The notes beneath the pieces were generated by a model. That model saw only the letters and a program-made list of their open reading frames with translations. It had not been told where the DNA came from and did no database searches. The position numbers and the translations under genes are program-made. A DNA stretch of 64,000 nucleotides from a virus. This document shows positions 8,954-47,700 of this stretch, piece after piece; the stretch's first letter is position 1; the number at the start of each line of letters is the position of its first letter. Location: positions 1-64,000 of the IMG/VR virus record IMGVR_UViG_3300050343_000145. One strand, written 5' to 3'.

Positions 8954-8956
8954 TAG

Positions 8957-9028
<72 letters not shown>

Positions 9029-14485: not shown

Positions 14486-17400
14486 ATGGCCAGAATAGAA
14501 AGTTACCAAAAAGATAATTCTTTACACGAAAAGGATAAACTTTTTGGATCATCTTACATATCTACAAATAACAGCACAGATCAATTTACTACAGGTAATT
14601 TTACCCTACAAGATCTTGCAGAATTTTTTGCTAATTACCAAATATCAGATAATCAGTTATATAATTTTGCCACAATAAGTCAGCAAGTCACAACAAATGT
14701 TTCTGATATAGAAGCTAACGCAACATATTCGTTGAACCTAGGGGCTAGCTTTGGTGCTGTAGATGATGATGGAAACTTAACATCACTTTCCCAGGCTTTT
14801 GCAAACCAAGTAATGACAGTTACAACTAATGCTCGATTTGCTGAATCAACTTATGCAGAAAACCTAGCTAGTACTTTTGGTACTTTTGACGCAGACGGTA
14901 ACTTAACTTCACTTTCAGAAGCTTTTGCTAATAATGTAATGACTACCACAGCATCGGATAGATTTGCTACAACAACATCGGTAAATACATTAACAAGTAC
15001 AGTTGAGGGCAAGCCGGATATATTTAGACAAGATGATGCTCCAGCTGTAACAAATGCCGTGGGATCAATATGGTACGATACGAATGATAATAATAAAGTC
15101 TACGTTTTATTAGCGGGAACACCAAATGTATGGACATTAACGTCAGATGACAGAATTATCACTAATTCTACATCTATTTCTAATGTTTCTCAGTCTGTTA
15201 CAACATTATCTAACTCTTTAGGTGCGGAAGCTGAATTAATTGATGAATTACAGACGCAATTCACATTTGATACCGAGGGTGGTATAACAGGAACCGCAGA
15301 TGCACTTGCAACAAGTATCACAACAGCGTCGTCCTCAGCAGCGGGTGCCGTAGCTACTGATCTTAATAAATTGGAGGCTGTATTTTCACAAGATTCTAAT
15401 GGAGACGTAACTGGAATAACAGGCGTATTATCTACAGCTGTCACATCTAATGCTAACTCAGCGATAGCAAATGCAAGTTTAGCAACAGCCCAATCAGTTA
15501 CAGATCTTACATCCACAGTAAATGGTAATACTGCTAGTATAAGTACCAACCAAAGTACTATTGCCACAGTAGAGGGATATACAGAATCAAGGTATTCATT
15601 AAAACTAGACGCAAATGGTTCTTTTGCTGGTATGTCTATACTTGCAAGTAATGGCACTACATCAGATCCTTTTTCAGAAATAAGATTTGTAGCAGATTCA
15701 TTTAAGGTATACAATGGGGGTCAAGCTGATTTAACAGGAAGTTACGACGCGCCTTTCGAGGTTGTTGGGGGAGTTGTTAAAATAAAAAGTGCTAACATAG
15801 GAAATATTTCGTTTGGAGATTTAACTAATGTACCAGGAACATTCGTGAGCACAGTAATATATGCAGATGATGCCAGTGGTACAAATGCTTCTGTTTCAAA
15901 AGGCAATAATCAAAACTTTTTTGCTATAAAACAAGCAAGTACAGCCTGGACAGATGGGGACAGTGTAGCCGGATTAACATTTACACAAATGACAGGAAAC
16001 ACGGGAGCCACAGGTTCTGCAGGTGCAGATGGCGCAGACGGTGCAAATGGAGCAGATGGAGCAGATGGAGCAGATGGTGCAGACGGAGGAACCGGAGCCA
16101 CCGGGGCTAGATCTTTTAGTAGATATTTATTTTATTCAACACCAACAACATCAGCGCCAACGTTTAATTCAAGTGGTATAACTTTTAGTTTTAGTAGTAA
16201 TTCTTTTAGCAACCTGCCTACAGGATGGAGTGAAACAGCGCCTGTAGCCACACCAGGATCTGGTAGTAATAATTATTGGCATTTATCAGTTAGTGTTATA
16301 GAAGGCTCTACAAATACGATAACATTTGGTTCTGTAACTAGAATGTTTGGATTTAGTGGGCTAGTAACTTTTTCAGGAACAACAATAAACGGTGCTTTTG
16401 ATTATACAGCAATTGACGGTAGTGCAATAACAACAGGCTCAATAGAAAGTGGAAACTATGTAGCATTATCGAATAGTGATTTTTCAAGCGCAGGAACTAA
16501 AATAAAATTATCAGATGGTGCTATTGAATCAAAAAACTTTTATGTAAAAGCAAATGGTGATGCTGGATTTTCCGGTATTATAACTTTAGGAAATACCAAT
16601 TTAACAGAAAGCAATACACTAAATTCGAATACAGCCGCAAGTGATGTTTCGGGATTAGGAGGATTAGCAACAAAAGACACAATAGATGCTACTTCTGCGG
16701 ATATTACAAATTTAGCAGCAGTTGCTACAAGTGGTAGTAAAGATGATGTAGGTTTAAATAATGTAGACAACACGTCCGACGCAACAATACTAGCTGGAAA
16801 TTTAACAGGTACTGTTGACGGAGCGACGGTTGCAACTGTTAAAAGTGGGGCTGCAGCGGGCGCAACGGCCAACCAAGATAGCACATCAACAATAAGATCT
16901 GTAGGAGCAGCAACATCTGGTACAATAGCAGGTTGGAAATTAGATGCTAATAATATATATAGTGGCTCTACTCCAGATTCTTCTGGTTTTACCACAGGTG
17001 GTATGACTTTAAATAAAAATGGTTCAATACACGCTAAACAATTTTATATAGACACAAGCGGTAATGCGTTTTTTACAGGAGATATAACAGGGGCCAACGG
17101 TACATTTAATGGTGATTTAGAAGTTACTGGAACAGCTTTAATAAAAGGATCTGTATCTTCTGGTAATTTTATTGCCGCTAAGTTTAAAAACACAGACACT
17201 ACCAATAACACAGGCGCGGGAATATCTCTAAATTCATCTAGCGATTACCATCATAGAATATTAATGACAGGTGGCAATACAGCTTCTTTACCAGATCAAG
17301 GCACTGTTTTTGATTTAAATGCTAGTTATCAATTAGGACAAGACGGGCAATATACCAAACAAATACTCAAAATGAATGGGGCCGGTATAATAATACCTAA

Positions 17401-18274
17401 CCAAACAGCTAACGGTATAACAGCTTCTACTAATTATAGCGGGGGTATGAATATTATATTCAATGACAATAGCGGTGGCAGAACGGGTAGTTCGGGTAGA
17501 TTACACGTAAATGAGTATTACAAAACATTTTTCTTAGATGTCCCCGGTGTCCAGGGGTCTGCTGGCCAGTGGCAAGATAAAGTTTTTGCAATGAGAGCAC
17601 ACAATGGAACAGGTGATCAAACTGTTTTTGATGTTGACACTAATAGAAAAATAACAACAGTGGGTGCTTTAGAAGTTGGGGGGAATTTCAACGGACAAAA
17701 CGGATATTTTGCACAAGACTTAGGCGTCGGATTTAATTCTGGATCAATTGGGGGTAAAATACAATTAAGAAGGTCTAGTGCTGGTATTGGTATTAAAAAC
17801 GATTACGGTACTGCAGGCAGCGGCACAATAGGTTTATTTGGTTATACAGCTTCTAATATGGATACAAGTAATGCGTATCATATGAACTTTCAAGCCGATG
17901 ATGGTAATGGCGTGACTAACATGTTGCTTTGCGACCTTAATGGTAATTTAAGAAATTATTTTAATTCTTACGGTGGCTTTTCTGATGAAAGATTAAAAGA
18001 AAACATTACAGACGCTAGTCCTAAATTGGAAGATATTAAACAGCTGAAGGTTAAAAACTTTAATTTTATAGGAAATGAACTTAAACAAATAGGATTAATA
18101 GCGCAAGAGGTCGAACAAATATTTCCTGGTTTAGTTGAGGAAACAACAGACCCTGGCCCAAGTGGCGCCGAAGAAGAAGTCGCTTATAAATCTATTAAAT
18201 ACTCTGTATTAGTGCCAATGCTTATAAAAGCCATACAAGAATTAGAAGCTAGAGTCGCGACATTAGAAGGTTAA
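14486..18274 (+). CDS. Long tail fibre with collagen-like region and S74 domain
   Basis: A 1262-residue fibre. Order: anchor module (MARIESYQKDNSLHEKDKLF), repeats like those of the preceding gene, a fibre domain near 370-420 (RYSLKLDANGSFAGMSI), a collagen-like Gly-x-x run at about 505-540 (GADGADGANGADGADG), more beta-rich shaft, and an S74 chaperone from about residue 1165 (SDERLKENI, IGLIAQEVEQIFPGL, VLVPMLIKAIQELE). Four bases after the previous fibre gene, with which it shares ancestry. Trimeric adhesin is the expected role. Confidence 0.87.
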   Translation: MARIESYQKDNSLHEKDKLFGSSYISTNNSTDQFTTGNFTLQDLAEFFANYQISDNQLYNFATISQQVTTNVSDIEANATYSLNLGASFGAVDDDGNLTSLSQAFANQVMTVTTNARFAESTYAENLASTFGTFDADGNLTSLSEAFANNVMTTTASDRFATTTSVNTLTSTVEGKPDIFRQDDAPAVTNAVGSIWYDTNDNNKVYVLLAGTPNVWTLTSDDRIITNSTSISNVSQSVTTLSNSLGAEAELIDELQTQFTFDTEGGITGTADALATSITTASSSAAGAVATDLNKLEAVFSQDSNGDVTGITGVLSTAVTSNANSAIANASLATAQSVTDLTSTVNGNTASISTNQSTIATVEGYTESRYSLKLDANGSFAGMSILASNGTTSDPFSEIRFVADSFKVYNGGQADLTGSYDAPFEVVGGVVKIKSANIGNISFGDLTNVPGTFVSTVIYADDASGTNASVSKGNNQNFFAIKQASTAWTDGDSVAGLTFTQMTGNTGATGSAGADGADGANGADGADGADGADGGTGATGARSFSRYLFYSTPTTSAPTFNSSGITFSFSSNSFSNLPTGWSETAPVATPGSGSNNYWHLSVSVIEGSTNTITFGSVTRMFGFSGLVTFSGTTINGAFDYTAIDGSAITTGSIESGNYVALSNSDFSSAGTKIKLSDGAIESKNFYVKANGDAGFSGIITLGNTNLTESNTLNSNTAASDVSGLGGLATKDTIDATSADITNLAAVATSGSKDDVGLNNVDNTSDATILAGNLTGTVDGATVATVKSGAAAGATANQDSTSTIRSVGAATSGTIAGWKLDANNIYSGSTPDSSGFTTGGMTLNKNGSIHAKQFYIDTSGNAFFTGDITGANGTFNGDLEVTGTALIKGSVSSGNFIAAKFKNTDTTNNTGAGISLNSSSDYHHRILMTGGNTASLPDQGTVFDLNASYQLGQDGQYTKQILKMNGAGIIIPNQTANGITASTNYSGGMNIIFNDNSGGRTGSSGRLHVNEYYKTFFLDVPGVQGSAGQWQDKVFAMRAHNGTGDQTVFDVDTNRKITTVGALEVGGNFNGQNGYFAQDLGVGFNSGSIGGKIQLRRSSAGIGIKNDYGTAGSGTIGLFGYTASNMDTSNAYHMNFQADDGNGVTNMLLCDLNGNLRNYFNSYGGFSDERLKENITDASPKLEDIKQLKVKNFNFIGNELKQIGLIAQEVEQIFPGLVEETTDPGPSGAEEEVAYKSIKYSVLVPMLIKAIQELEARVATLEG

Positions 18275-18319: not shown

Positions 18320-18616
18320 ATGACTTATTTTTACAAAACCTATTCCTGGGGGAACAACAGTACTCAAGGAATATCCGAAGAAACCAGAACTCTTTGGGAG
18401 CACATCGCTAAAAAAGAAAACTGGCGAATTGTTCAACTACCTAATGGATTTTTTCAAGCCGAATACAAAGATCTAAGTGAAGAAGAAAAATGGATCGATG
18501 TCACAAGGCGTGAAACTTTAGAAAGCTGTGAGGCAGCGATTGATGGAAGCATTAGTCATTACTCTAAAAAGCTTGAGTTTTTAAAAGGACCCAAGGTAGT
18601 TAAAACCTTTAAATAA
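18320..18616 (+). CDS. 98-residue protein between fibre and chaperonin genes, unknown
   Basis: Soluble alpha/beta protein (MTYFYKTYSWGNNSTQGISE; ENWRIVQLPNGFFQAEYKDL) with a basic tail KGPKVVKTFK. I do not recognise a family. The N-terminal half recalls short domains attached to phage appendage proteins. It lies 46 bases after the fibre gene. Confidence 0.55.
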   Translation: MTYFYKTYSWGNNSTQGISEETRTLWEHIAKKENWRIVQLPNGFFQAEYKDLSEEEKWIDVTRRETLESCEAAIDGSISHYSKKLEFLKGPKVVKTFK

Positions 18617-18642: not shown

Positions 18643-20205
18643 ATGGAATATAATAACCCAAGTGAGATAGTAAAAGACCTTTCCTTTGGGAAGGATGCTA
18701 GAAATAAAATTATGCACGGGGTAGATAAATTGACAAGTGCAGTTAAGTCTACCCTTGGTGCTTCTGGAAAATGCGTTATATATGAAGACGCACTAGGAAG
18801 GCCGGTGATCACAAAAGATGGTGTAACCGTAGCGGAAAGCGTAGTCTTAATCGACCCGGTCGAAAATATTGGCGCAACTTTAATAAAAGAAGCAGCAAGA
18901 AATACAGTAAGAGAAGCGGGTGATGGCACAACAACAGCCACAGTGCTTGCTCATTCATTGCTGCATTTAGCCAATGATCACAAAGACGATAATAACATAA
19001 GAGATATTAAAAAAGGTATTTTAAGTGGCTTAAATAAAGTCAACAAATATCTTGATAAAAAAGCTATTGAAGTAAAAGACAATATGCTCGAAAGTGTTGC
19101 AGCAATTAGCTGTAATAATGATAAAGCTCTTGGTGGTGTTATATCGCAAGCTTACTCAAAAGTAGGTAAGGATGGTGTTGTCCTTATGGAGGAGTCTGAG
19201 ACCCATGACACATACGTAAAATTCGTAGAGGGCACTAGGTTAGACTGCGGACTCAAGTCGCCACATTTTATAACAGATAAGGATAAAGGTAAAGCGGTAC
19301 TAGAAAATCCGTACGTACTGATAGTTTCATCGCCAGTACCTAATATCCGTAAAATACAAAACGTATTGGAGTTTGTTATCAAATCGAAAAGAAGCTTACT
19401 GATCGTAGCAGGCGTAGAACAACAACCTATGGCAGCGTTGCTAGCAAACAAAGTCAAAGGTAATATAAAAGTAAATGTTGTGGATCTGCCTGGATTCGGT
19501 CCGACTAAACAAGATACAATTGAAGACCTTGCGATATTAACCGGAGCTAAAGTAATGAATGAAGAATTAGGAGATGATCTTGATTTAATTTCACCTGAAG
19601 TTTTAGGACAAGCTGTTTTATCAGTTACAGATGACAAGCATACTGTACTGCAAATAACTGACCAGGGTGTTGTGCTTGATGAACGAATAGAAACAGTTGA
19701 AAAGAAAGTTAGAGAAGAAAAAAATCCATTCTTTAAAAAGAAGTTGCAAGAAAGATTAGCAATGTTGAACGGCCAAGTGGCAATGATTAAAGTAGGTGCG
19801 GACTCTAAAGTTGAAATGAAAGAAAAGAAAGATAGAGTTGAGGATGCAATATATGCTACTAAAGCAGCGTTGCAAGAAGGTATTGTTCCAGGTGGTGGAG
19901 TAGCACTATTAAATGCTTCTCAAAAAATTAAACCTAACGGTTTGGGTGAGCAAATACTGTTAGAAGCAATTAAATCACCATACAAAACAATAATTGCTAA
20001 TGCAAATTTACCTTATGCGGAATATCCTACGGCAGGAACTGGTATTGATGTTGCAAACGAAGCACCAGTTAGAATGGTTAATAAAGGAATTATTGATCCT
20101 GTGTTAGTGACTAAAACAGCATTGAAAAATGCAGTTAGTGTGGCTAATACAATATTTTCAGCGGATTGTGTAATTAACAATGTAAGAAGTTATGAAAGCA
20201 ATTAA
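18643..20205 (+). CDS. groEL: Phage-encoded chaperonin GroEL
   Basis: A 520-residue group I chaperonin subunit. It keeps the nucleotide-binding elements TKDGVTVAE (57-65) and DGTTTATVLA (94-103) and the hinge stretch VEDAIYATKAALQEGIVPGG near residue 400, with the Asp needed for ATP hydrolysis. Unlike cellular GroEL, the TLGPKG loop reads TLGASGK, the apical PGFG lacks the usual DRRK, and there is no C-terminal GGM tail (it ends NVRSYESN). The divergent sequence and shortening indicate a phage lineage, not a recent host copy. groES follows, overlapping by 14 bases. Likely folds capsid or fibre proteins. Confidence 0.95.
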   Translation: MEYNNPSEIVKDLSFGKDARNKIMHGVDKLTSAVKSTLGASGKCVIYEDALGRPVITKDGVTVAESVVLIDPVENIGATLIKEAARNTVREAGDGTTTATVLAHSLLHLANDHKDDNNIRDIKKGILSGLNKVNKYLDKKAIEVKDNMLESVAAISCNNDKALGGVISQAYSKVGKDGVVLMEESETHDTYVKFVEGTRLDCGLKSPHFITDKDKGKAVLENPYVLIVSSPVPNIRKIQNVLEFVIKSKRSLLIVAGVEQQPMAALLANKVKGNIKVNVVDLPGFGPTKQDTIEDLAILTGAKVMNEELGDDLDLISPEVLGQAVLSVTDDKHTVLQITDQGVVLDERIETVEKKVREEKNPFFKKKLQERLAMLNGQVAMIKVGADSKVEMKEKKDRVEDAIYATKAALQEGIVPGGGVALLNASQKIKPNGLGEQILLEAIKSPYKTIIANANLPYAEYPTAGTGIDVANEAPVRMVNKGIIDPVLVTKTALKNAVSVANTIFSADCVINNVRSYESN

Positions 20206-20449
20206 TTACTACGTTGTAATAGAGAAAATTAAAGAAGCACCGAAGAAAGTAGGTGGCTTGGAACTCACTGAAGATCAAAATAAAGACGTTAGATATTTAA
20301 AAGGCAAAGTTATATCTGCTGGTAATCTAGTAGAAAATTTAAATAAAGATGATATAGTGCATTATGATAAGCATGCTGGCCACGGTATAGAATGGTCAGA
20401 TAAATTGTACTATGTGTTGAAGTTGGGAGATATAGTATTAGTCGAATGA
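20192..20449 (+). CDS. groES: Phage-encoded co-chaperonin GroES
   Basis: An 85-residue GroES homologue: MKAINYYVVIEKIKEAPKK, then GLELTEDQNKDVRYLKGKVI (mobile-loop position, lacking the typical IVL), and a C-terminal YYVLKLGDIVLVE as in GroES. It overlaps groEL by 14 bases, so the two are produced together. The changed mobile loop suggests it is tuned to the phage chaperonin. T4 gp31 is the classic phage analogue. Confidence 0.88.
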   Translation: MKAINYYVVIEKIKEAPKKVGGLELTEDQNKDVRYLKGKVISAGNLVENLNKDDIVHYDKHAGHGIEWSDKLYYVLKLGDIVLVE

Positions 20450-20886
20450 GATTAAGTGCTAACGACATAAGAAATTTAAATTTACTAAAATATTATAGGC
20501 TCATTCGAAAATGGGCCTGTAAAACTTATGGGCTAAAAGATGCTGATCTTGAATTACTAATCTATTTAGATTGCAAAGAACGATTTACACGTAATGATTT
20601 TATTGATGGCACCTACACCTACAGTTGGGATAAAGATAGGTGGGAAAGACTCAGAAGAGATGGGTGGATAGATGTATGGAGAGAGCGCAATAGGACAACA
20701 ATAAAATACAGCATATATAAAACTTCTTTTAAATGTAAACAATTAATTACGAGAATATATCGTATAATGCTTGCAGAAGAAGATTTGCCAACAAGCGAAA
20801 GAAGTAAGTTTTATAATAATAAATCATATACAGATAAAGTTTACAATAAAGCAATTGATGATATGATTAAAGATAAAGATAGATAA
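20446..20886 (+). CDS. Winged-helix-like conserved phage protein
   Basis: A 146-residue basic protein with a layout like a MarR-type winged helix: YYRLIRKWACKTYGLKDADL, LELLIYLDCKERFTRNDF, then WERLRRDGWIDVWRERNRTT resembling a wing. Proteins with this ADLELL-x-YLD pattern occur near structural genes of several marine phages. DNA binding is inferred. It overlaps groES by four bases and the next gene by one. Confidence 0.55.
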   Translation: MRLSANDIRNLNLLKYYRLIRKWACKTYGLKDADLELLIYLDCKERFTRNDFIDGTYTYSWDKDRWERLRRDGWIDVWRERNRTTIKYSIYKTSFKCKQLITRIYRIMLAEEDLPTSERSKFYNNKSYTDKVYNKAIDDMIKDKDR

Positions 20887-21292: not shown

Positions 21293-21580
21293 ATGCCAAG
21301 TAAAAACGCTCCGTCAAGGAAAAAATCAAAAGGATATTACACTAAAGTAAATAAAAAAGGAGGCACTGGTTCAAAAGCCGGTGGTGGTATGTCTAAAAAA
21401 GGTGTGGCTAAATACAGAAGAGATAACCCAGGTAGTAAACTTAAAACAGCAGTCACAACACCTCCATCTAAATTAAAGAAAGGAAGTAAAGCTGCAAAAA
21501 GACGTAAATCATTTTGTGCAAGATCAAAAGGCTGGAAGTCTGAAAGAGGATTAGCAGCAAGAAGAAAATGGAATTGTTAA
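21293..21580 (+). CDS. Small basic conserved phage protein (DUF6321-like)
   Basis: A 95-residue very basic protein. The core GGMSKKGVAKYRRDNPGSKL, then VTTPPSKLKKGSKAAKRR and KSFCARSKGW is a widespread marine-phage pattern that I recall being labelled DUF6321 (from memory, unchecked). Likely a minor virion or DNA-associated protein. Ends AARRKWNC. Confidence 0.7.
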   Translation: MPSKNAPSRKKSKGYYTKVNKKGGTGSKAGGGMSKKGVAKYRRDNPGSKLKTAVTTPPSKLKKGSKAAKRRKSFCARSKGWKSERGLAARRKWNC

Positions 21581-21899: not shown

Positions 21900-22781
21900 A
21901 TGAATTATAAAATGGTAAACAAGGAAGGTTTTAAAATGGCGGGTAATCCAGCTTATAAACTTGATCCAACTATTTCATTAACGGGGTTTGATCCTAAAAA
22001 AAAAATAAATTTTGATCCATCAAAACTTTCTGCTTTAAATATACCCAGCATAAATGATATTGTAAATTATGATAATGAAAGTATGAGTGTTTCAGATGTT
22101 AATATTAATGAAACATTTAGAACAAAAACATATGATGATATGAGAGCAGCGGGAGCTTCTGAAGAAGATATTATTAAAGCCAAAGCTTTTAATACAGAAA
22201 AATATGGCACAATTAATCCTACAGCCGCAGGAAAAACTAATAATCAAACACTAGATAGTTTTAATGCTGTAGTTAATTTGGCAAGCATCCCACAACCTGG
22301 TGCACCAGAAGTTAAAGGAGATGCATTTACTAGTTATGATAAAAGGCAAAGAGCAAGGGGAATTAAATTTGAGGAAAATTTAATAAGTAGAAAAGATAAA
22401 AAAGGAAAAAGACTTGGTGAAGTTATTGGTAAGTTAGAAGGTAAAGAAAAATTAAATAAAAAACAAGAAAGAAGACTTGCTAATTTAAAATCTAGACAAA
22501 CAAAAAATACTAGAATAAAAGATAGGCTTGAGGATGTCAATAAGATTAGTAAAAAACAAGATTTACAAGGTATTAATCCTAGTGTTGGTAAAAAAGATAG
22601 AGTTATTTTAGAAGCGGGAAAACCTGGCTCCTCTACAACACCGTCAAAATTAGGTGGAATAAATGTTTCCGATAGTGAAAGAGTGGCATATGTAAAAAAT
22701 AAATTAGGAAAACCGCAAATGAAGCCAATGCAACTTTCACCTAAGGCTATGAACTATTTTAGTAAAAAGAATAAAAAATAA
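21900..22781 (+). CDS. Lysine-rich protein, probably minor virion component
   Basis: A 293-residue protein with an ordered N-terminal half and a very charged C-terminal half (KRLGEVIGKLEGKEKLNKKQ, then ERRLANLKSRQTKN), a likely coiled coil. No family recognised. It ends KAMNYFSKKNKK and overlaps the holin start by one base (TAATG). The same frame is open upstream (SNGVRKNRGYQ before the chosen ATG), so the start may be lost to an indel. Confidence 0.5.
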   Translation: MNYKMVNKEGFKMAGNPAYKLDPTISLTGFDPKKKINFDPSKLSALNIPSINDIVNYDNESMSVSDVNINETFRTKTYDDMRAAGASEEDIIKAKAFNTEKYGTINPTAAGKTNNQTLDSFNAVVNLASIPQPGAPEVKGDAFTSYDKRQRARGIKFEENLISRKDKKGKRLGEVIGKLEGKEKLNKKQERRLANLKSRQTKNTRIKDRLEDVNKISKKQDLQGINPSVGKKDRVILEAGKPGSSTTPSKLGGINVSDSERVAYVKNKLGKPQMKPMQLSPKAMNYFSKKNKK

Positions 22782-23188
22782 TGAAAAAATTATTTGCTAA
22801 ATTATTTGGTGGCGCGGGATTAGATGTTGCAGATAAAATTGGTGGACTTGTAGATAAGTTTGTAAGAACTAAAGACGAAAAAGCTAACTTTGAAAAAGAA
22901 ATGACTTTGATATTTAAAGAACACGAGTTATCATTAGAAAAAGAAATATCCGCAAGGCATAAAGCGGACATGTCTTCCGATTCATGGCTTTCTAAAAATA
23001 TTCGGCCAATGATTACTTTATTCAGCTTAGCAATATACACATTATTTGCAATAGCTGATGGCAACATAGGCGAATTCAATTTACAAAATCAATACGTAGA
23101 TCTTATGGGACAAATTTTATCTTATGCTTTAGGTTTTTATTTCACATCTAGAGGGTTAGAAAAGATTTCAACTATAGTAAAAAAATAA
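22781..23188 (+). CDS. Holin, 3-TM type
   Basis: A 135-residue protein with the marks of the three-TM (GTA-type) holin family: an amphipathic N-terminus (MKKLFAKLFGGAGLDVADKI), a helical stretch, the conserved ARHKADMSSDSWLSKNIRP, then hydrophobic segments (MITLFSLAIYTLFAIADG and MGQILSYALGFYFTS). It would form inner-membrane holes that release the endolysin. It sits far from the M15 endolysin (60200), an unusual split of the lysis genes. Confidence 0.78.
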   Translation: MKKLFAKLFGGAGLDVADKIGGLVDKFVRTKDEKANFEKEMTLIFKEHELSLEKEISARHKADMSSDSWLSKNIRPMITLFSLAIYTLFAIADGNIGEFNLQNQYVDLMGQILSYALGFYFTSRGLEKISTIVKK

Positions 23189-34107: not shown

Positions 34108-34309
34108 AATAAGTATAGGTAGAGACTATAAGAACGACGCTATGCATTATGCGGTAGGCCAAGAAGTATATGGTGGCCATACAATATGCGACATAGTAGA
34201 AGGTGACGATAAGTTTTCTATTTATATTAAAAAAAAGAACGAAGTATTACCGTGGAAAGATTTTAATAAAAACATGGCCATAGCCGTGGAATACAACCTA
34301 GAATATTAA
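34091..34309 (+). CDS. Small conserved phage protein (IGRDYKNDAMHYAVGQ type)
   Basis: A 72-residue protein starting MSLVRKISIGRDYKNDAMHY with VGQEVYGGHTICDIVEGDD and ending MAIAVEYNLEY. The start at 34091 was chosen over an internal-overlap start at 34055 because MSLVRKIS is the family-like N-terminus. The pattern is frequent just upstream of terminase genes in marine phages; function unknown. Confidence 0.62.
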   Translation: MSLVRKISIGRDYKNDAMHYAVGQEVYGGHTICDIVEGDDKFSIYIKKKNEVLPWKDFNKNMAIAVEYNLEY

Positions 34310-34893
34310 TGCAAAGTTTATTTAACTTTATAGTTAAACCTAAAAACGAAAGATACGATAATAAAAAATATATTGATGGTCAGGAACTACTGTTAAACAC
34401 AGAAATTTCTGATCACCGATATGTTAGTCGTAACGGTATAGTGACAGCAATACCTAAGTCACAGGAAACTGAAATACAAATTGATGATGAAGTTATTGTG
34501 CACCATAATGTTTTTAGAAGATGGTATGATGTAAGAGGTGTTGAAAAAAACAGCAGAAGCTACTATAAAGAAGATAAATACTTTATAACATCAGACCAAA
34601 TATTTTTATACAAACGAAACAAAAATTGGCAAGCGCCTAAAGGATTTTGTTTTGTTAAACCAATTGAATCAAATAATATTATAGAAAAAGAAATGCCACT
34701 ACGTGGTATTATAAAGTATGTTGATAAAGAACTTAAAGATATACAAAAAGAAGATTTAGTTGGTTTTACACCAAGCAGTGAATACGAATTTATTGTTGAT
34801 GGTGAAAGATTGTATAGAGTACCAACTAATTCAATATCTATTAAGTATGAACGTAAAGGAACAGAAAGAGAATATAATCCAAGCTGGCTATGA
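34309..34893 (+). CDS. Conserved phage beta-barrel-like protein, unknown
   Basis: A 194-residue protein with RNGIVTAIPKSQETEIQIDD, EVIVHHNVFRRWYDVRG and NSRSYYKEDKYFITSDQIFL. The strand-loop pattern around IDDEVIVHHN is reminiscent of GroES-like beta barrels, but this is weak. A family with the same HHNVFR motif occurs ahead of terminase genes in other marine phages. It shares a one-base overlap with its upstream neighbour. Confidence 0.58.
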   Translation: MQSLFNFIVKPKNERYDNKKYIDGQELLLNTEISDHRYVSRNGIVTAIPKSQETEIQIDDEVIVHHNVFRRWYDVRGVEKNSRSYYKEDKYFITSDQIFLYKRNKNWQAPKGFCFVKPIESNNIIEKEMPLRGIIKYVDKELKDIQKEDLVGFTPSSEYEFIVDGERLYRVPTNSISIKYERKGTEREYNPSWL

Positions 34894-35119
34894 TGCAGTT
34901 AAAGAACTTGTTAAAGTTGCAAAAGAACCGATTGTTGAAACTGATGATGATGTTTCAGCCGATCGACTCAAGAACGCTGCAGCCACTAAAAAGCTCGCAA
35001 TATTCGATGCATTTGAGATTCTAAATAGAATTGAAATTGAAAAAGCATTGCTTGAAGGAAGAAATATAGAAGAGAAACCAGAGTCATTCAAAGGCTTTGC
35101 TGAAAGAAGGTCTAAGTAA
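34847..35119 (+). CDS. Probable small terminase-like protein
   Basis: A 90-residue helical protein immediately before the large terminase. Start chosen at 34847 (MNVKEQKENIIQAGYDAVKE), avoiding a long overlap with the previous gene. It contains DRLKNAAATKKLAIFDAFEI, a likely helical oligomerisation segment. Position, size and helical character fit a small terminase or its analogue, although no HTH is visible. Its last base overlaps the first base of the terminase start. Confidence 0.5.
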   Translation: MNVKEQKENIIQAGYDAVKELVKVAKEPIVETDDDVSADRLKNAAATKKLAIFDAFEILNRIEIEKALLEGRNIEEKPESFKGFAERRSK

Positions 35120-37329
35120 TGTACGAGCAGTCATTATATCGCGTTATAGAGCCTATAAAAATCAATACGATTAAAAGGCTTAATAAAACAAAAAAGTGGA
35201 AATACGGTTATAATAAAGAGCATGATGTAGTTGTTATAAGTAAAACCGGGCAGATAGGAGATGTGTATAGCATACAGAATTTAAAAATAGCATTACCTAA
35301 ACAACCAAAAGAAATTTTTAATAGTAATAATAAATGGGAAGCACAAGAGTATCCCAAAGAGTTACAAAAATTAAAAACAATATTTGATTGGAAGGATTTA
35401 CCAAGTAATTTTAAAGACAAGTGGAATGTTTACATTGATAGAGAATTTACCAAACGCGAAGAAGGTTATTGGTTTTATAACAAAGGCAACCCTACTTATA
35501 TCACTGGGTCTCATTATATGTACTTGCAATGGACCAAGATTGATGTTGGGAAACCAGATTTTAGGGAAGCAAACAGATTATTCTTTTTATTCTGGGAAGC
35601 TTGCAAAGCAGACACAAGATGTTATGGAATGTGCTACCTTAAAAACAGACGGTCTGGTTTTTCATTCATGGCATCATCAGAAACTGTTAACCAAGCTACC
35701 ATCTCTTCCGACTCTAGGTTTGGTATCTTGTCAAAATCAGGGGGTGATGCAAAAAAAATGTTCACAGATAAAGTTGTACCAATATCCGTTAACTACCCAT
35801 TCTTTTTTAAACCAATACAAGACGGAATGGATAGACCAAAAACGGAATTGGCATATCGTGTTCCCGCAAGTAAGTTCACAAAGAAAAGTATTATTACAAA
35901 CCAAAGAAACGAAGAGCTTGCTGGATTAGATACAACTATTGATTGGAAAAATACAGGTGATAACAGTTATGACGGGGAGAAGTTAGCATTACTAGTGCAT
36001 GACGAAGCGGGAAAATGGGAAAGACCTGAAAACATATTAAACAACTGGCGTGTAACTAAAACTACATTAAGGTTAGGTTCAAGAGTAATTGGTAAGTGTA
36101 TGATGGGTTCAACAAGCAACTCATTAGACAAAGGTGGTGAAAACTTTAAAAAATTATACAATGACTCAAATGTTACAAAACGAAACCGTAATGGGCAGAC
36201 TCGCTCAGGATTATATAGTTTGTTCATACCTATGGAATGGAACTTCGAAGGATTCATTGATTCTTATGGAATACCTGTATTCGACACTCCCGAAGAGCCA
36301 GTTAAAGACAACTATGAGGAATACATTGACGTCGGGGTTATTGACCACTGGGAAAATGAAGTTGAAGGTTTAAAAGGAGATCAAGACGGTTTAAATGAAT
36401 TTTATCGTCAATTTCCAAGAACTGAGGAGCACGCTTTCAGAGATGAAACTAAAAATAGTATATTTAATCTTGCTAAGATCTACGAGCAAATTGATTTTAA
36501 CGACGACGCTACTGCGGCAGTTAATGTCACCACTGGATCTTTTTCTTGGCAAAATGGAGTTAAAGACACAAAAGTGCAATTTACACCAAATCCCAATGGA
36601 AGATTTAAAGTGAGTTGGGTGCCAAGTTTAAATTTACAAAATAGCATTATAAATAAAAATGGGTTTAAATATCCTGGAAACGAACATATGGGTGCGTTTG
36701 GATGTGATAGCTACGACATATCGGGTACAACCGATGGCAAAGGTTCTAAAGGATCTTTACATGGCCTTACTAAGTTTAGTATGGAAGATGCGCCACCAAA
36801 CCGATTTTTTTTAGAATACATAGCTAGGCCACAAACCGCAGAAATGTTTTTTGAAGATGTTTTAATGGCATTAGTATTTTATGGCATGCCGTTATTATGT
36901 GAAAATAATAAACCTCGATTGTTATATTATTTAAAAAGAAGAGGATATAGAGGCTATTCAATGAATAGACCAGATAGAGCTTGGAATAAATTATCAACTA
37001 CAGAAAAAGAAATAGGTGGTATACCAAACTCAAGTGAAGATATAAGGCAAGCGCACGCTGCCGCAATAGAAACGTATATAAATTCCCACGTTGGGATTAA
37101 ATCCGACGGAACTTATGGTGATGTATATTTTAATACTACATTAAACGATTGGGCTAAGTTTGACATAAACAAAAGAACAAAGTTTGATGCAGCAATAAGT
37201 TCAGGATTAGCAATTATGGCATGCAACAGGCATTTATACCGCCCTCATGCCGAAAAACAAAAATCAAAAGTTAATATTAACTTTTCTCGATACGAAAATA
37301 AAGGAACTTTATCAAAAATAATAAAATAA
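35119..37329 (+). CDS. terL: Large terminase (packaging ATPase-nuclease)
   Basis: A 736-residue DNA-packaging motor. The Walker B motif LALLVHDEAGK (D295-E296) is clear. The Walker A position has the deviant LKNRRSGFS (174-182) instead of GxxxxGK[ST]. The coupling motif region MGSTSN follows near 334. The nuclease half begins around 525 with AFGCDSYDIS (D530), a likely metal-binding Asp. It is longer than most TerL proteins, mainly through an N-terminal extension. The next gene is the portal, as expected. Confidence 0.85.
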   Translation: MYEQSLYRVIEPIKINTIKRLNKTKKWKYGYNKEHDVVVISKTGQIGDVYSIQNLKIALPKQPKEIFNSNNKWEAQEYPKELQKLKTIFDWKDLPSNFKDKWNVYIDREFTKREEGYWFYNKGNPTYITGSHYMYLQWTKIDVGKPDFREANRLFFLFWEACKADTRCYGMCYLKNRRSGFSFMASSETVNQATISSDSRFGILSKSGGDAKKMFTDKVVPISVNYPFFFKPIQDGMDRPKTELAYRVPASKFTKKSIITNQRNEELAGLDTTIDWKNTGDNSYDGEKLALLVHDEAGKWERPENILNNWRVTKTTLRLGSRVIGKCMMGSTSNSLDKGGENFKKLYNDSNVTKRNRNGQTRSGLYSLFIPMEWNFEGFIDSYGIPVFDTPEEPVKDNYEEYIDVGVIDHWENEVEGLKGDQDGLNEFYRQFPRTEEHAFRDETKNSIFNLAKIYEQIDFNDDATAAVNVTTGSFSWQNGVKDTKVQFTPNPNGRFKVSWVPSLNLQNSIINKNGFKYPGNEHMGAFGCDSYDISGTTDGKGSKGSLHGLTKFSMEDAPPNRFFLEYIARPQTAEMFFEDVLMALVFYGMPLLCENNKPRLLYYLKRRGYRGYSMNRPDRAWNKLSTTEKEIGGIPNSSEDIRQAHAAAIETYINSHVGIKSDGTYGDVYFNTTLNDWAKFDINKRTKFDAAISSGLAIMACNRHLYRPHAEKQKSKVNINFSRYENKGTLSKIIK

Positions 37330-39737: not shown

Positions 39738-40982
39738 ATGTCAGAAACAGTAAAAGTAAAAGTTTTAGATGCTGAAGAGCCATCTATACAAGAAAAAGAA
39801 GAAATTGTACAAAAGAACGCTGGGTTCGATGAAGAATCAGGCGTGTACAAGGTGGATCTTTCAAAACCACCAGTAACTGAAGAGCAACCTAAAGAAGAAA
39901 CAGATGCCGTTCAAGAGCAAAGCGCAGATGAGGTTCCTGTACAAGACGAACCCGAAACTAGCGAAAAAGTGGTCGAAGAAATACAAGACAAAGAACCTGC
40001 CGGAGAAAGTGATGCAGATGTGCGGGATACACAAGAAGAAGAGGTAGTATTAGAAGAGTTAACAGACGAACAACCTAACGAATCAACTAGTGTTGAAGAA
40101 GAACCGGTTGAAAAAGTTGTTGAGGTTGAAAAAGCTGAAGTTAAAGAAGAAATAGAGTATCCTGAAAATATTCAAGACTTGGTTAAGTTTATGAATGAAA
40201 CAGGAGGAACTTTGGAAGATTATGTAGCGTTAAATAAAGATTATGAGAAATTTGAAGACATGTCTTTGCTACATGAGTATTACACTAAATCTAAACCTCA
40301 TTTATCCGCAGATGAAATTAACTTCTTGATAGAAGATAAATTTTCATTTGATGAAGAAATAGATGAGCCTAAAGATATTAAAAGAAAAAAATTAGCTTTT
40401 AAAGAGGAAGTTGCGCAAGCAAAAAACCATCTTGAATCACAAAAGTCTAGTTACTATAAAGAAATTAAAGCTGGATCAAGGTTAACACCTGAACAGCAAA
40501 AAGCAATGGACTTTTTCAATAGATACAATGAAGAAAGTGCAGAGCAAGAAAAAACAACACAATCTCAAAGAGAAGTGTTCGACAATAAAACTAAATCTTT
40601 TTTCAATAACCAATTCAAAGGTTTTGAATACAGTGTTGGCGACAAAAGATATAGATTTAACGTCAAAAATGTGAACGAGGTTAAAAATACTCAAAGCGAC
40701 ATCAATAATTTTGTCAAGAGGTTCTTGAATGAAAAAAATGAAATGAACGACGCTGCCGGTTATCATAAGTCTTTGTTTACTGCGATGAATGCCGACGCAA
40801 TTGCAAATCACTTTTATGAGCAAGGTAAATCAGACGCTATTAAAGAGTCTGTTAAATCTGCAAAAAACATCAAAATGGATCCTAGATCCAGCCATCAAGA
40901 AATTGAGGTAGGTGGTATGAAAGCGAAAGTAATTAGTGGAGACAGTGCATCGGGTTTAAAATTAAAACTTAAAAATTATTAA
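39738..40982 (+). CDS. Scaffold-like acidic protein
   Basis: A 414-residue protein between portal and major capsid genes. The first 140 residues are an extremely acidic, Val/Glu-rich, disordered region (EEEVVLEELTDEQPNESTSV); the rest is helical (YPENIQDLVKFMNETGGTLE; FAMTA-type alternation absent). The C-terminal tail is basic (SASGLKLKLKNY), as in scaffolds that bind capsid protein. Position and composition support an internal scaffold. Confidence 0.68.
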   Translation: MSETVKVKVLDAEEPSIQEKEEIVQKNAGFDEESGVYKVDLSKPPVTEEQPKEETDAVQEQSADEVPVQDEPETSEKVVEEIQDKEPAGESDADVRDTQEEEVVLEELTDEQPNESTSVEEEPVEKVVEVEKAEVKEEIEYPENIQDLVKFMNETGGTLEDYVALNKDYEKFEDMSLLHEYYTKSKPHLSADEINFLIEDKFSFDEEIDEPKDIKRKKLAFKEEVAQAKNHLESQKSSYYKEIKAGSRLTPEQQKAMDFFNRYNEESAEQEKTTQSQREVFDNKTKSFFNNQFKGFEYSVGDKRYRFNVKNVNEVKNTQSDINNFVKRFLNEKNEMNDAAGYHKSLFTAMNADAIANHFYEQGKSDAIKESVKSAKNIKMDPRSSHQEIEVGGMKAKVISGDSASGLKLKLKNY

Positions 40983-40994
40983 AAATTATTAAAA

Positions 40995-42307
40995 ATGGCA
41001 AACAACAATGTAGCGTTTAGCGGCCCAGCGGCTGCTAGTATAATTAGCCCAAGTGCAGTAAAATCAGCACTCGCGTCTAATTACTTAAATTTTCATGGTG
41101 CAGGTGGATCTAACTGGTCTCAGCAATATTTACCTGAACTATATGAACAAGAAGTAGAAAGATATGGAAATAGAACTGTATCTTCTTTCTTAAGAATGGT
41201 AGGTGCAGAAATGCCTATGGCTTCTGATCAAGTTATTTGGTCTGAGCAAGGTAGATTACACCTAGCATACAACGCGGTTGTAGACTGTACAGATGGTTCT
41301 GTAGGTACAATCACGGGTATTGATTCAGGTGCAGCTGAGGCTCACGCTGTAAGAAAAGGAGCAACTATCGTAGCTTCTATTACAGGTAACTCAAGTGCAG
41401 CAACTGAAGTAGTAAAATGTTATGTAACAGCTGGTATTGAAGCTTCAACTTCTGCGTTAACTATCAAGCCTTACGGCGGAGCTAACTTAGAGGATATTGG
41501 ATCTTTAATGTAAACGGTTCTGACACTGCTCAGATCGGTTGGGTAGAAGTTGCTACTGAAGATGGAACTGGTGGATACTTATGGTATTTAAAAGCTGAGT
41601 CTGAAACAAGACTTAGATTTGAAGATTACTTAGAAATGGCAATGGTTGAAGGTGAACTTAATTCAGCTGGTGTTGTGCCTGCTGCTCAAGGTGGTACTCA
41701 AGGTTTATTTGCTGCTATCCAAGATAGAGGTAACGTAGAAGTAGGATTTACTGCTGCTGCTGGGTTAGACGCTTTTGATGCAATTCTTAAAAACTTAGAT
41801 ACTCAAGGAGCTATTGAAGAAAACATGTTATTCTTGAACAGATCTACTCTCTTGATTTTGACGATATGTTAGCTTCTATTTCTGGTGGATTCGCTGGAGG
41901 TACTGCTTTTGGATTATTTGAAAACTCTGAAGAAATGGCTTTAAACTTAGGTTTCTCTGGTTTCAGAAGAGGTTCTTATGACTTCTACAAAACTGACTGG
42001 AAATACTTAAACGATGCTTCTACTCGTGGAGGATTAGTTGGACCTGCAATCTATTGAAGGTGTATTAGTACCAGCTGGAACTTCTACAGTATACGATCAA
42101 ATCTTAGGAACAAACATTAGAAGACCATTCTTACACGTACGTTATAGAGCTTCACAAGCTGATGACAGAAGAATGAAGTCTTGGTTAACTGGTTCTGTAG
42201 GTGGTGCTTTCACTTCATCTTTAGATGCAATGGAAGTAAACTTCTTATCAGAAAGATGTTTAGTAACTCAAGCTGCTAATAACTTTGTATTATTCAAAGG
42301 AATCTAA
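40995..42307 (+). CDS. Major capsid protein, broken by three frame changes
   Basis: Joined product about 437 residues. Pieces: 40995-41513 (MANNNVAFSGPAAASIISPS, LPELYEQEVERYGNRTVSSF), then NGSDTAQIGWVEVATEDGTG in another frame, then FDDMLASISGGFAGGTAFGL, then VLVPAGTSTVYDQILGTNIR with the C-terminus VTQAANNFVLFKGI. The breaks lie near 41503 (T-run), 41850 (TT) and 42045. Codon use here is the most regular in the window, as expected for the most abundant protein. Position after portal and scaffold supports the call. A phage could not live with these breaks, so they are probably consensus errors. Confidence 0.8.
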
Positions 42308-44751: not shown

Positions 44752-47700
44752 ATGCCTGAAATCAAAAACGCTTTCATAAAAGGTAAAATGAATAAAGACC
44801 TTGATGAGAGATTAGTTCCTAATGGTGAATATAGAGATGCATTAAACATTGACGTTGATTATTCAGAGGGCAGTGATGCTGGTGCATTAAAAAATGTTTT
44901 AGGCAATATCGCAGTAGGCTCAATTCCAGGAAGCGGGGAAGATATTATTTCTACGGGGTATTGCATTGGAAACGTTAAGGATACTAAAGAAAATAAAATA
45001 TATTGGTTAATACAAGATAATTTATTCACACACCCTATAAACGGAACATATGAAAATAGAGATATAATAGCCGAATATGATATTGAAACAAACACTTTAT
45101 CACCTGTATTAATAGATTTCGAGGCTAATGCATTAAACTTTAATAGATCATTTTTAGTTACCGGCATAAATATATTAGACGGTGTATTGTACTTTACAGA
45201 TGGTTTAAATGAGCCTAAACAAATCGATGTTGAATACTGGAAGACTCAAACTTCAAATTTTTATACCGACACAACAGGACTAACGGAAGAAAGAATTACT
45301 GTTATTAAAAAATCACCACTACAAGCGCCAACTTTAGATATGGACAGCTCTACAAGGGGTGGGAATGGAACACAAGGAAATACAAATGTTTATGTTAATT
45401 TAAATTTATCTGACGGCGGCGGCCAAGCTACTGCTCTTGATAATTCTTTAGATTCTGGTGATGATATAGTAGGCACATTTTCTTTATCGCCAAACTATAA
45501 GCCAGGAGATATAATTATATTAACGCACTCGTTTACAGATCCTGCTAGCAACGAAGAAACCAAACTTGAGGCTAGAATATTATTAAAATCTACTTATACA
45601 GTACAAGCTACATTTTTTCAATCAGAACTTTTAACAATAAGTGAAACTGTGCCAGGCGGTATTGTTCAATGGCAAGCAATATTAGAAGAAGATGAGCCTT
45701 TATTTGAGTTAAAATTTCCACTATTTTCATACCGATATAAATATAACAATGGCCAATATAGCTGTTTTGCTCCTTTTTCTAAAGCTGCATTTTTACCAGA
45801 TTCAAATAAAATAGGTGAAAATTTTGAATACGATTCAAAGAATGGTTATAATGTAGGAATGACAAACACATTAAGACAATTAGAATTACAAGGATTAAAC
45901 CATAATATCAGTGTCGATGTTGATGAGGTGGATGTGTTATATAAGGAGTCTAATAGTAATAATATATACATTGTAGATACAATCAAAAAAGTAAACGGCA
46001 CATTAGCTAGCATATTTAAAATAAAAGACGAACAAATATTTAAAACAGTTGAAGCTAATCAATTGTTGAGGTTATTTGATAGTGTGCCTAAAAAAGCGCA
46101 AACACAAGAAATATCTGCAAACAGAATTATATATGGTAATTACACACATCAATTTGATTTACCAAATGAAAACCCGTTATTTGATGTAAAGCTTAAAAAT
46201 AGATATAACCCTAGTGACGCTACATATGCCGAAGACAAAAAACAAATGTTGTCTATTAAATCTAATAGAACATATCAGTTAGGTGTTGTATATATAGATA
46301 AATATGGCAGACAAACACCAATATTAACGGACAAGTCTGGGATCATTAAAGTTCCATTTAATCAAGCAAAAAACAAAACACAATTCAAAGTTAGTGTTAC
46401 TAACGGTGGGGCAAGTGGTTTTGAAAATTATAAATACTTTGTAAAAGAAATATCTTCAACGACATACAATTTATGTGCCGACAGTTTTTATCAAGATGAT
46501 GAAGGCGCAATATATATATCTTTCCCTTCTTCTGAAATTAATAAAGTCAAAGAAGAGGATATATTATTATTAAAGAAAAAGGCTGGTAATAATTTAAGTG
46601 AAGATGGAACTAAATTTAAAGTTTTAGATAAACTTAACGCGGTGCCTGATTTTCTTGCTAAACCGCTCAGCGCAGACTATGTACCCGAGTATTTCAATTT
46701 TGGCAGACAATTTAATAGAGACAGTGGATATGCCGAACAACCAACTGCAGCAGAAAGAGATGGTGGTTATATGGGTACAAATGCATCACAATCTGGCGGT
46801 AAAGCTTGGTTTTTAGAGCCAGGATCAACGCCGGTTCCAAATCACAACTCTATTATAATAAGAGATATGTTTAATGTTGGCGATGTGCAAATTGCTGACG
46901 CAAGTTCTCAATATACCTCAGAATTCAATGGTATTTCTGCTGAAGCTAGAAGCGCAATGAAACCGGGGTCGAAAATAAGATGGAATGTTGGTGGTGCACA
47001 AACAAAAGTTTATACTGTAAAATCATTTCAAATTGGTACTGGACCCTCAAGCACGTCTCATGACGACGCAGAAGTAACCTTCGAAGAAGAATTTGGTGAA
47101 GATGTATTAGTGTTATATGATGAACAAGATTACGAAGACAATCCAAGAATAGCTGTTTTAGCGCAAGGTATAACTATAGAAACATTAAAGACTAAAGACG
47201 AGAGCGGCAAAGCTGAATTTGCAGGTAAGTTTTTCTTAAAATTACAAGCTTCTTCAAATTTATTAAACGAATTAGTTGACACAACAAACACAGATCAATT
47301 AGTAGCAAGATCATCAATTAGATTTGATGGTTATGATGATGGTAATTTTAGAAATGATGAAAGTAACAGTTATAGACAGTTCTTTATTGCGTATGGAGGT
47401 AAAGCGGGAACAGATTCCTCACAATTGTCCTCTTTGTCAAGACCGCTTAATCAAGGTGGATGGGCCCACTCAACTGCTGGTTTAAATTTACCTGCAAACT
47501 GGGAAGATGATGGTTATCATTTTGTTTTACAAACCGAAAGAAAATTAAATGACGCTGACAGTAATTATGGCAGTCACCCTTTTATAAAAAATTTAAAAGA
47601 AGGTAACTACATACGATTTAGTGGTTTTAAATACAGCGGCACCACTAGATGGTTTGATGAAAAATATTACAAAATAAAAAAGATATTAAAAAGAAATTAC

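What the first reader, a model, noticed from the sequence alone, without database searches (positions are those of the whole stretch)
18643..20449. Phage groEL-groES pair with diverged functional loops
Both subunits are encoded in the structural block. GroEL lacks the GGM tail, has TLGASGK in place of TLGPKG, and has an altered PGFG region; GroES has a changed mobile loop. ATP-site residues are kept. Full phage chaperonin pairs are uncommon, and this one sits between fibre genes, which hints at fibre or capsid clients.
Basis: partly seen in the sequence, partly recalled or inferred. Interest (0 to 1): 0.65.

Follow-up and report, generated by a model that had tools for sequence, protein, structure and literature searches.

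The report
Phage chaperonin with two lid genes
A sea phage of Bacteroidota-type kin carries its own protein-folding machine, a real and strongly conserved GroEL-GroES pair already known from such phages, but its GroES lid lacks the usual roof and a second, probably double-barrelled, lid-like gene sits beside the DNA-packaging gene.

Summary
In detail: groEL (18643-20205) and groES (20192-20449) are intact, overlapping genes. The pair is not rare in its lineage: 305 viral contigs encode relatives, and in the best 80 all 80 have groES overlapping the end of groEL. Chaperonin genes of these flavobacterial phages are in print (PMC5332604, PMC11590407). GroEL forms its own phage clade and is not a recent host capture. 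ATP residues are fixed; apical, salt-bridge and ring-ring positions are rebuilt in a family-wide way. GroES lacks the roof hairpin in 80 of 80 relatives, as T4 gp31 does. Fibre genes are not the constant neighbours; a 98-aa ORF and a 146-aa probable winged-helix ORF are. 31 of 34 GroEL-bearing contigs of 30 kb or more carry it. Best reading: a working, phage-owned group I chaperonin for late phage proteins, with two lid genes. Client and lid mixing are inference.

The parts
18643..20205 (+). groEL (Cpn60, group I chaperonin), 520 aa
   Evidence: Pfam PF00118 182 bits; PHROG 5725 E 1.4e-136; NF000592 464 bits over its cut-off 397, TIGR02348 448.5 under its cut-off 582.1; model pLDDT 77, TM 0.82 to GroEL chains
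20192..20449 (+). groES (Cpn10), 85 aa, without the roof hairpin; overlaps the end of groEL by 14 bases
   Evidence: Pfam PF00166 35.6 bits; PHROG 3188 E 4e-11; model pLDDT 93.6, Cpn10 fold Z 11.1 to 1wnr_G; roof interval 11 residues against 20 in E. coli
34309..34893 (+). second co-chaperonin-like gene, 194 aa, probable tandem of two Cpn10-like domains, upstream of TerL
   Evidence: PHROG 13932 'co-chaperonin GroES' E 1.5e-18; C half against Cpn10 97.1%, N half 43-72%, both above 40 of 40 column shuffles; not found by Pfam Cpn10 in the window itself
20446..20886 (+). 146-aa ORF, probable winged-helix regulator, constant neighbour downstream
   Evidence: 79 of 79 relatives with room; only PDB hits are two winged-helix regulators, E 0.25 and 0.66, not significant
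18320..18616 (+). 98-aa ORF of unknown function, constant neighbour upstream
   Evidence: 76 of 77 relatives with room; no family match at E 0.001
35119..37329 (+). terminase large subunit (context)
   Evidence: PHROG 6681 E 2e-165
14486..18274 (+). tail-fibre-like protein with C-terminal S74 self-chaperone domain (context)
   Evidence: PF13884 48.7 bits

Best explanation
The two genes encode a working, phage-owned group I chaperonin. GroEL rings bind and hydrolyse ATP and bind non-native protein. The phage GroES caps them through its GGLEL mobile loop. Because the lid has no roof hairpin, the dome should be more open, as in T4 gp31, which suits a bulky late phage protein; the major capsid protein is the likeliest client, fibres less so. 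The same phage carries a second, probably tandem, co-chaperonin-like protein by the terminase gene, which most likely serves the same rings as an alternative or mixed lid. Shown: genes, homology, selection, fixed ATP residues, missing roof, co-occurrence. Inferred: ring assembly, ATPase, lid pairing, client, late timing.
For: Intact pair in 80 of 80 relatives (two of these GroELs are cut or frame-broken at the 5' end). groEL dN/dS 0.05-0.16 (13 of 14 pairs computable); groES 0.025-0.21 (13 of 14). D52, D87, D398, D495 fixed in 81 of 81. The D83-K327 salt bridge is kept with swapped charges in 67 of 81, and D155-R395 unchanged in 81 of 81, which fits a preserved working cycle. No roof hairpin in 80 of 80; gp31 lacks the roof loops and helps fold capsid protein gp23 (PMC6318259, passages). 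phi38:1 GroEL is found in infected cells, and its Table 3 (free virions) lists GroEL and the putative capsid protein (PMC13288928, section 6 part 1 and passages). Second lid gene in 31 of 34 GroEL-bearing contigs of 30 kb or more.
Against: No experiment. P33A and K34S sit in the nucleotide loop (two of 81 rows not covered there). The apical position L234 is Q in 81 of 81 and Y203 is H in 63 of 81, which could weaken binding. R197-E386 is lost (R197 absent in 81 of 81; E386 kept in 1 of 81) and K105-E434 has no E434. The GroEL model has only pLDDT 77. The host lid or a host GroEL could take part. GroEL sits by replication genes in phi38:1 and immuto, so gene place does not name the client.
Confidence: 0.62

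Rival explanations
1. The GroEL works as a single ring, or as loosely paired rings without inter-ring signalling, so GroES release does not depend on a second ring.
For: Ring-contact positions are rebuilt: E434 and residues 467-468 are gapped in 81 of 81, A109 in 74 of 81; the window has K, P, A, E at 452, 461, 463, 464. Phage EL chaperonin is proposed to switch between double and single rings (PMC7185714, abstract passage).
Against: The alignment around 425-470 holds indels, so single positions there are unsure. Some relatives keep E461 (36 of 81). No multimer was modelled.
Confidence: 0.3
2. A recently captured host chaperonin pair that just adds folding capacity.
For: GroEL and GroES are host-type group I proteins; best PDB match is an ancestral Fibrobacteres-Chlorobi-Bacteroidetes chaperonin.
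Against: No match of 60% identity or more in 50,697 phage or 72,556 plasmid records; 18 of 18 family rows form one fully supported clade apart from 9 bacterial GroELs.
Confidence: 0.04
3. The 194-aa protein is not a lid but a packaging or head-assembly protein that reused the Cpn10 barrel, for instance as a terminase partner.
For: It lies upstream of the terminase gene in the window and in MW202828, phi38:1, phi46:3, phi18:3, phi19:3 and phi13:2. In the window family the C-half loop is short and has no mobile-loop motif.
Against: The N half keeps a GGVEF, GGIEF, SGLEL or DGQELLL-like stretch where a mobile loop would be. Four phages without any Cpn60 match keep both a single and a terminase-side Cpn10 gene.
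Confidence: 0.35

Closest known systems
Chaperonin genes of Flavobacteriaceae phages (Callevirus phi38:1 and Calle_1, Elemovirus, Maribacter phage Panino, MW202828)
   Same: GroEL, single-domain GroES and a terminase-side Cpn10-like gene in one phage genome
   Different: Only 35-40% identity to the window GroEL; gene order differs (phi38:1 by DNA polymerase)
T4 gp31
   Same: Phage co-chaperonin without roof loops (passages); Z 8.8, rmsd 3.0, 80 aligned to 1g31_A
   Different: T4 gp31 works with host GroEL; here the phage has its own GroEL; 12% identity in that alignment
Chloroplast Cpn10 plus Cpn20 lids
   Same: A single-barrel and a tandem-barrel co-chaperonin together (PMC5780408, passages)
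   Different: Phage proteins, highly diverged; the N barrel is only probable; mixed rings not tested
Pseudomonas phage EL gp146
   Same: Phage-encoded chaperonin (PMC7185714, passages)
   Different: EL is 22% identical to GroEL and has no known GroES; the window GroEL scores 378 bits to a bacterial-type chain and 109 to a GroEL-like chain 6tmt, which I take to be EL (recalled)

Membership tests
Group I chaperonin (GroEL) | Cpn60 domain over curated cut-off | tested here: met
   Pfam 182 bits against 34.3; NF000592 464 against 397
Group I chaperonin (GroEL) | NCBI GroEL equivalog cut-off (TIGR02348) | tested here: not met
   448.5 bits against 582.1: a diverged member, so not filed as a GroEL equivalog
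Group I chaperonin (GroEL) | Catalytic and ATP residues | tested here: met
   D52, D87, D398, D495 in 81 of 81; P33 and K34 are replaced
Group I chaperonin (GroEL) | Three-domain fold | tested here: met
   TM about 0.82-0.84 to GroEL chains such as 1oel_A and 1mnf_A, model pLDDT 77
Group I chaperonin (GroEL) | Seven-fold rings and ATPase | not testable with these tools
   needs purified protein
GroES / Cpn10 | Cpn10 domain over cut-off and fold | tested here: met
   35.6 bits against 21.1; Z 11.1 to 1wnr_G
GroES / Cpn10 | Mobile-loop motif | tested here: met
   GGLEL or a variant in 80 of 80
GroES / Cpn10 | Roof hairpin | tested here: not met
   interval of 11 residues in 76 and 12 in 4 of 80, against 20 in E. 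coli and 15 in Parabacteroides; gp31 lacks roof loops too
gp31-like co-chaperonin | Roof absent | tested here: met
   gp31 by paper
gp31-like co-chaperonin | Lengthened mobile loop | not tested
   -
Tandem Cpn10 (Cpn20-like), for 34309-34893 | C-terminal Cpn10 domain | tested here: met
   hhalign 97.1%, E 7e-11, score 59.6, shuffles at most 15.0 in 40; Pfam Cpn10 hits the terminase-side gene's C half in phi38:1, Calle_1 and four other Cellulophaga phages, not in the window
Tandem Cpn10 (Cpn20-like), for 34309-34893 | N-terminal Cpn10 domain | tested here: inconclusive
   hhalign 43-72%, score 27.2 with the 18-row set, shuffles at most 19.5 in 40; only 2.8% against three bacterial GroES
Tandem Cpn10 (Cpn20-like), for 34309-34893 | Works as a lid, alone or in mixed rings | not testable with these tools
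   needs binding assays

The most novel reading that the evidence does not exclude
The phage builds a mixed seven-barrel lid from two genes, one single-barrel GroES and three tandem proteins (1 + 3 x 2 = 7), reaching by itself the solution used by chloroplasts. The tandem gene is the older part of the system, kept by the terminase gene even in phages that rely on host GroEL; GroEL belongs to only part of the lineage.
Probability: 0.2. Interest if true: 0.78.

Novelty: new variant of a known kind. Interest (0 to 1): 0.5.

Why it matters
Phage chaperonins test what a folding cage needs: this family shows which salt bridges, ring contacts and lid parts can be lost or swapped while the gene pair stays under strong selection. 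If the terminase-side gene is a second lid, these phages would offer a small, genetically tractable model of mixed lids, so far known to me only from plastids, and a way to ask which virion protein demands a private chaperonin.

Tried and rejected
Recent host capture: rejected. Fibre clients from gene place: weak. Capsid client from co-occurrence: the listed hosts of the gene after the portal (39738-40982) matched those of the 194-aa gene, 77 and 77 records, but the Cellulophaga phages missing from both carry a Cpn10-like gene at the terminase-side place and an ORF after the portal, so this is divergence, not absence; not used.

Strict pairing of GroEL Q234 with the E of GroES GGLEL: rejected, Q234 is in 81 of 81 while the GroES loop varies. 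An hmmsearch of the 194-aa family against PDB sequences found no Cpn10 (three hits, E 0.54-1), and Pfam Cpn10 hit 1 of 22 members. Of 15 contigs with the 194-aa gene 4 had Cpn60; by the ranges the 11 others hold at most about 13 kb upstream of it, less than the 14.1 kb between the two genes here, so this is no evidence either way. Not known from papers: searches found no paper on tandem Cpn10 in phages (open-licence library only). Marine et al. 2017 (PMC5649160) is not held and is known only as a reference.

Flaws of mine: one search used residue numbers off by one, redone; one search failed on a thread setting, replaced. In one search two of the 18 single-GroES rows (phi46:3, phi13:2) were wrongly read as one letter, so they are not in its roof table; their printed 82-84 aa sequences show G to D in 11 residues by eye. 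The same two dummy rows are in the 18-row profile of that call. dN/dS of one pair in each gene (L046) could not be computed.

Full report
What is there. groEL (18643-20205, 520 aa) and groES (20192-20449, 85 aa) are intact and overlap by 14 bases. Family models agree. The record is a virus contig of 67,216 bases. Its terminase is nearest to MW202828 (63%), then Elemovirus (45%), Maribacter phage Panino (41%) and Cellulophaga phages, so a Bacteroidota host is likely but not shown.

How common. 276 of 50,697 phage records give a GroEL match, all under 60% identity (some of these records are bacterial). In IMG/VR 308 stretches matched a pattern and 305 encode a relative; the best 80 were kept. 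In 80 of 80 groES starts before or at the end of groEL. Published: GroEL in 36 environmental genomes of a Flavobacteriaceae phage group that includes phi38:1 (PMC5332604, passages), GroEL and GroES in Panino (PMC11590407, passage), and 'chaperonin cpn10' as a core protein of Pervagoviridae (PMC8776804, passages).

Where it comes from. A tree of 40 GroELs (18 of this family, 13 other phage, 9 bacterial) puts 18 of 18 in one clade at 100/100 on a stem of 1.25 changes per column; Panino, elemo and MW202828 lie next to it with weaker support (91/90) and a long-branch warning. The bacterial rows hold three Bacteroidales and no flavobacterium.

How it differs. Over 81 rows (window plus 80; two rows lack part of the N terminus) the ATP residues D52, D87, D398 and D495 are in all. 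TLGPKG became TLGASG in 79 of the 79 rows that cover it. L234 is Q in 81, Y199 is L or I in 81, Y203 is H in 63. D83-K327 has swapped charges in 67 of 81; D155-R395 is unchanged in 81; R197 is lost in 81 and E386 is K in 76. Ring-ring positions 434 and 467-468 are gapped in 81. The functional labels of these positions are recalled. They suggest altered ring contact and allostery, not a dead protein: groEL dN/dS is 0.05-0.16 in 13 pairs and groES 0.025-0.21 in 13 pairs (one of 14 each not computable).

The lid. The GroES model (pLDDT 93.6) has the Cpn10 fold. The roof interval is 11 residues in 76 and 12 in 4 of 80 relatives, 20 in E. coli, Variovorax, XbC2 and immuto, 15 in Parabacteroides, 11 in DAC16, phi38, elemo and MW202828, 14 in Panino. 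Roof loss is thus shared by several Bacteroidota phages and resembles gp31. That the cage is more open is inference.

Neighbours. With room to look, the 98-aa ORF is kept in 76 of 77, the 146-aa ORF in 79 of 79, a holin-like ORF (22781-23188) in 75 of 75, and the upstream fibre in 24 of 47. A distant 146-aa homologue lies next to groES on the other strand in MW202828 and elemo, and near it in Panino. It resembles winged-helix regulators only weakly.

The second lid gene. ORF 34309-34893 (194 aa) matches PHROG 13932, 'co-chaperonin GroES'. Its phi38:1 counterpart and the gene at the same place in phi46:3, phi18:3 and phi13:2 are annotated co-chaperonin GroES, in phi19:3 chaperonin cpn10. Pfam Cpn10 finds two places over cut-off in six of 11 records searched, a single-domain gene and the C half of the terminase-side gene; in the window it finds only groES. 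Profile comparison gives the C half 97.1% to Cpn10 and the N half 43-72%; 40 of 40 column shuffles of each score lower. Five control families all score under 15 there. Four Cellulophaga phages have both Cpn10 genes but no Cpn60 match; Tenacibaculum phage Gundel_1 has neither; five of five records of MW202828, Panino, phi38:1, elemo and Calle_1 have Cpn60. Of the window plus all 33 GroEL-bearing contigs of 30 kb or more among the 80, 31 of 34 carry the 194-aa gene; the three misses are 32.6-42.2 kb fragments.

Verdict. The given finding is real but, as a groEL-groES pair, an already known kind. The roofless lid with reworked salt bridges, and the second lid gene with probable tandem build, make it a new variant. 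Client and lid mixing remain open.

Noticed in passing
window 40983-42307: The probable major capsid protein gene is broken into four overlapping reading frames (40983-41513, 41486-41872, 41818-42057, 42038-42307); assembly errors are likelier than biology, not checked.
   Followed up: no
window 44752-49386: The 1544-aa protein has a crassvirus muzzle C-terminal domain (PF25729, 30.2 bits, cut-off 27), a link to crAss-like virion parts.
   Followed up: no
window 20446-20886: A 146-aa probable winged-helix ORF stays with the chaperonin pair even in distant phages, sometimes on the other strand.
   Followed up: partly
window 21293-21580: Small basic protein with DUF6321 (44 bits, cut-off 28.5), kept in 62 of 78 relatives.
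   Followed up: no
window 22781-23188: Holin-like protein (PF11351, PHROG 3427) in 75 of 75 relatives with room, so lysis and chaperonin genes share a block.
   Followed up: no
W01-W04 (phi46:3, phi18:3, phi19:3, phi13:2): Four phages keep a single and a terminase-side Cpn10 gene without a Cpn60 match, so they would have to use host GroEL.
   Followed up: partly
window 8956-9028: A lone tRNA-Met gene on the minus strand.
   Followed up: no
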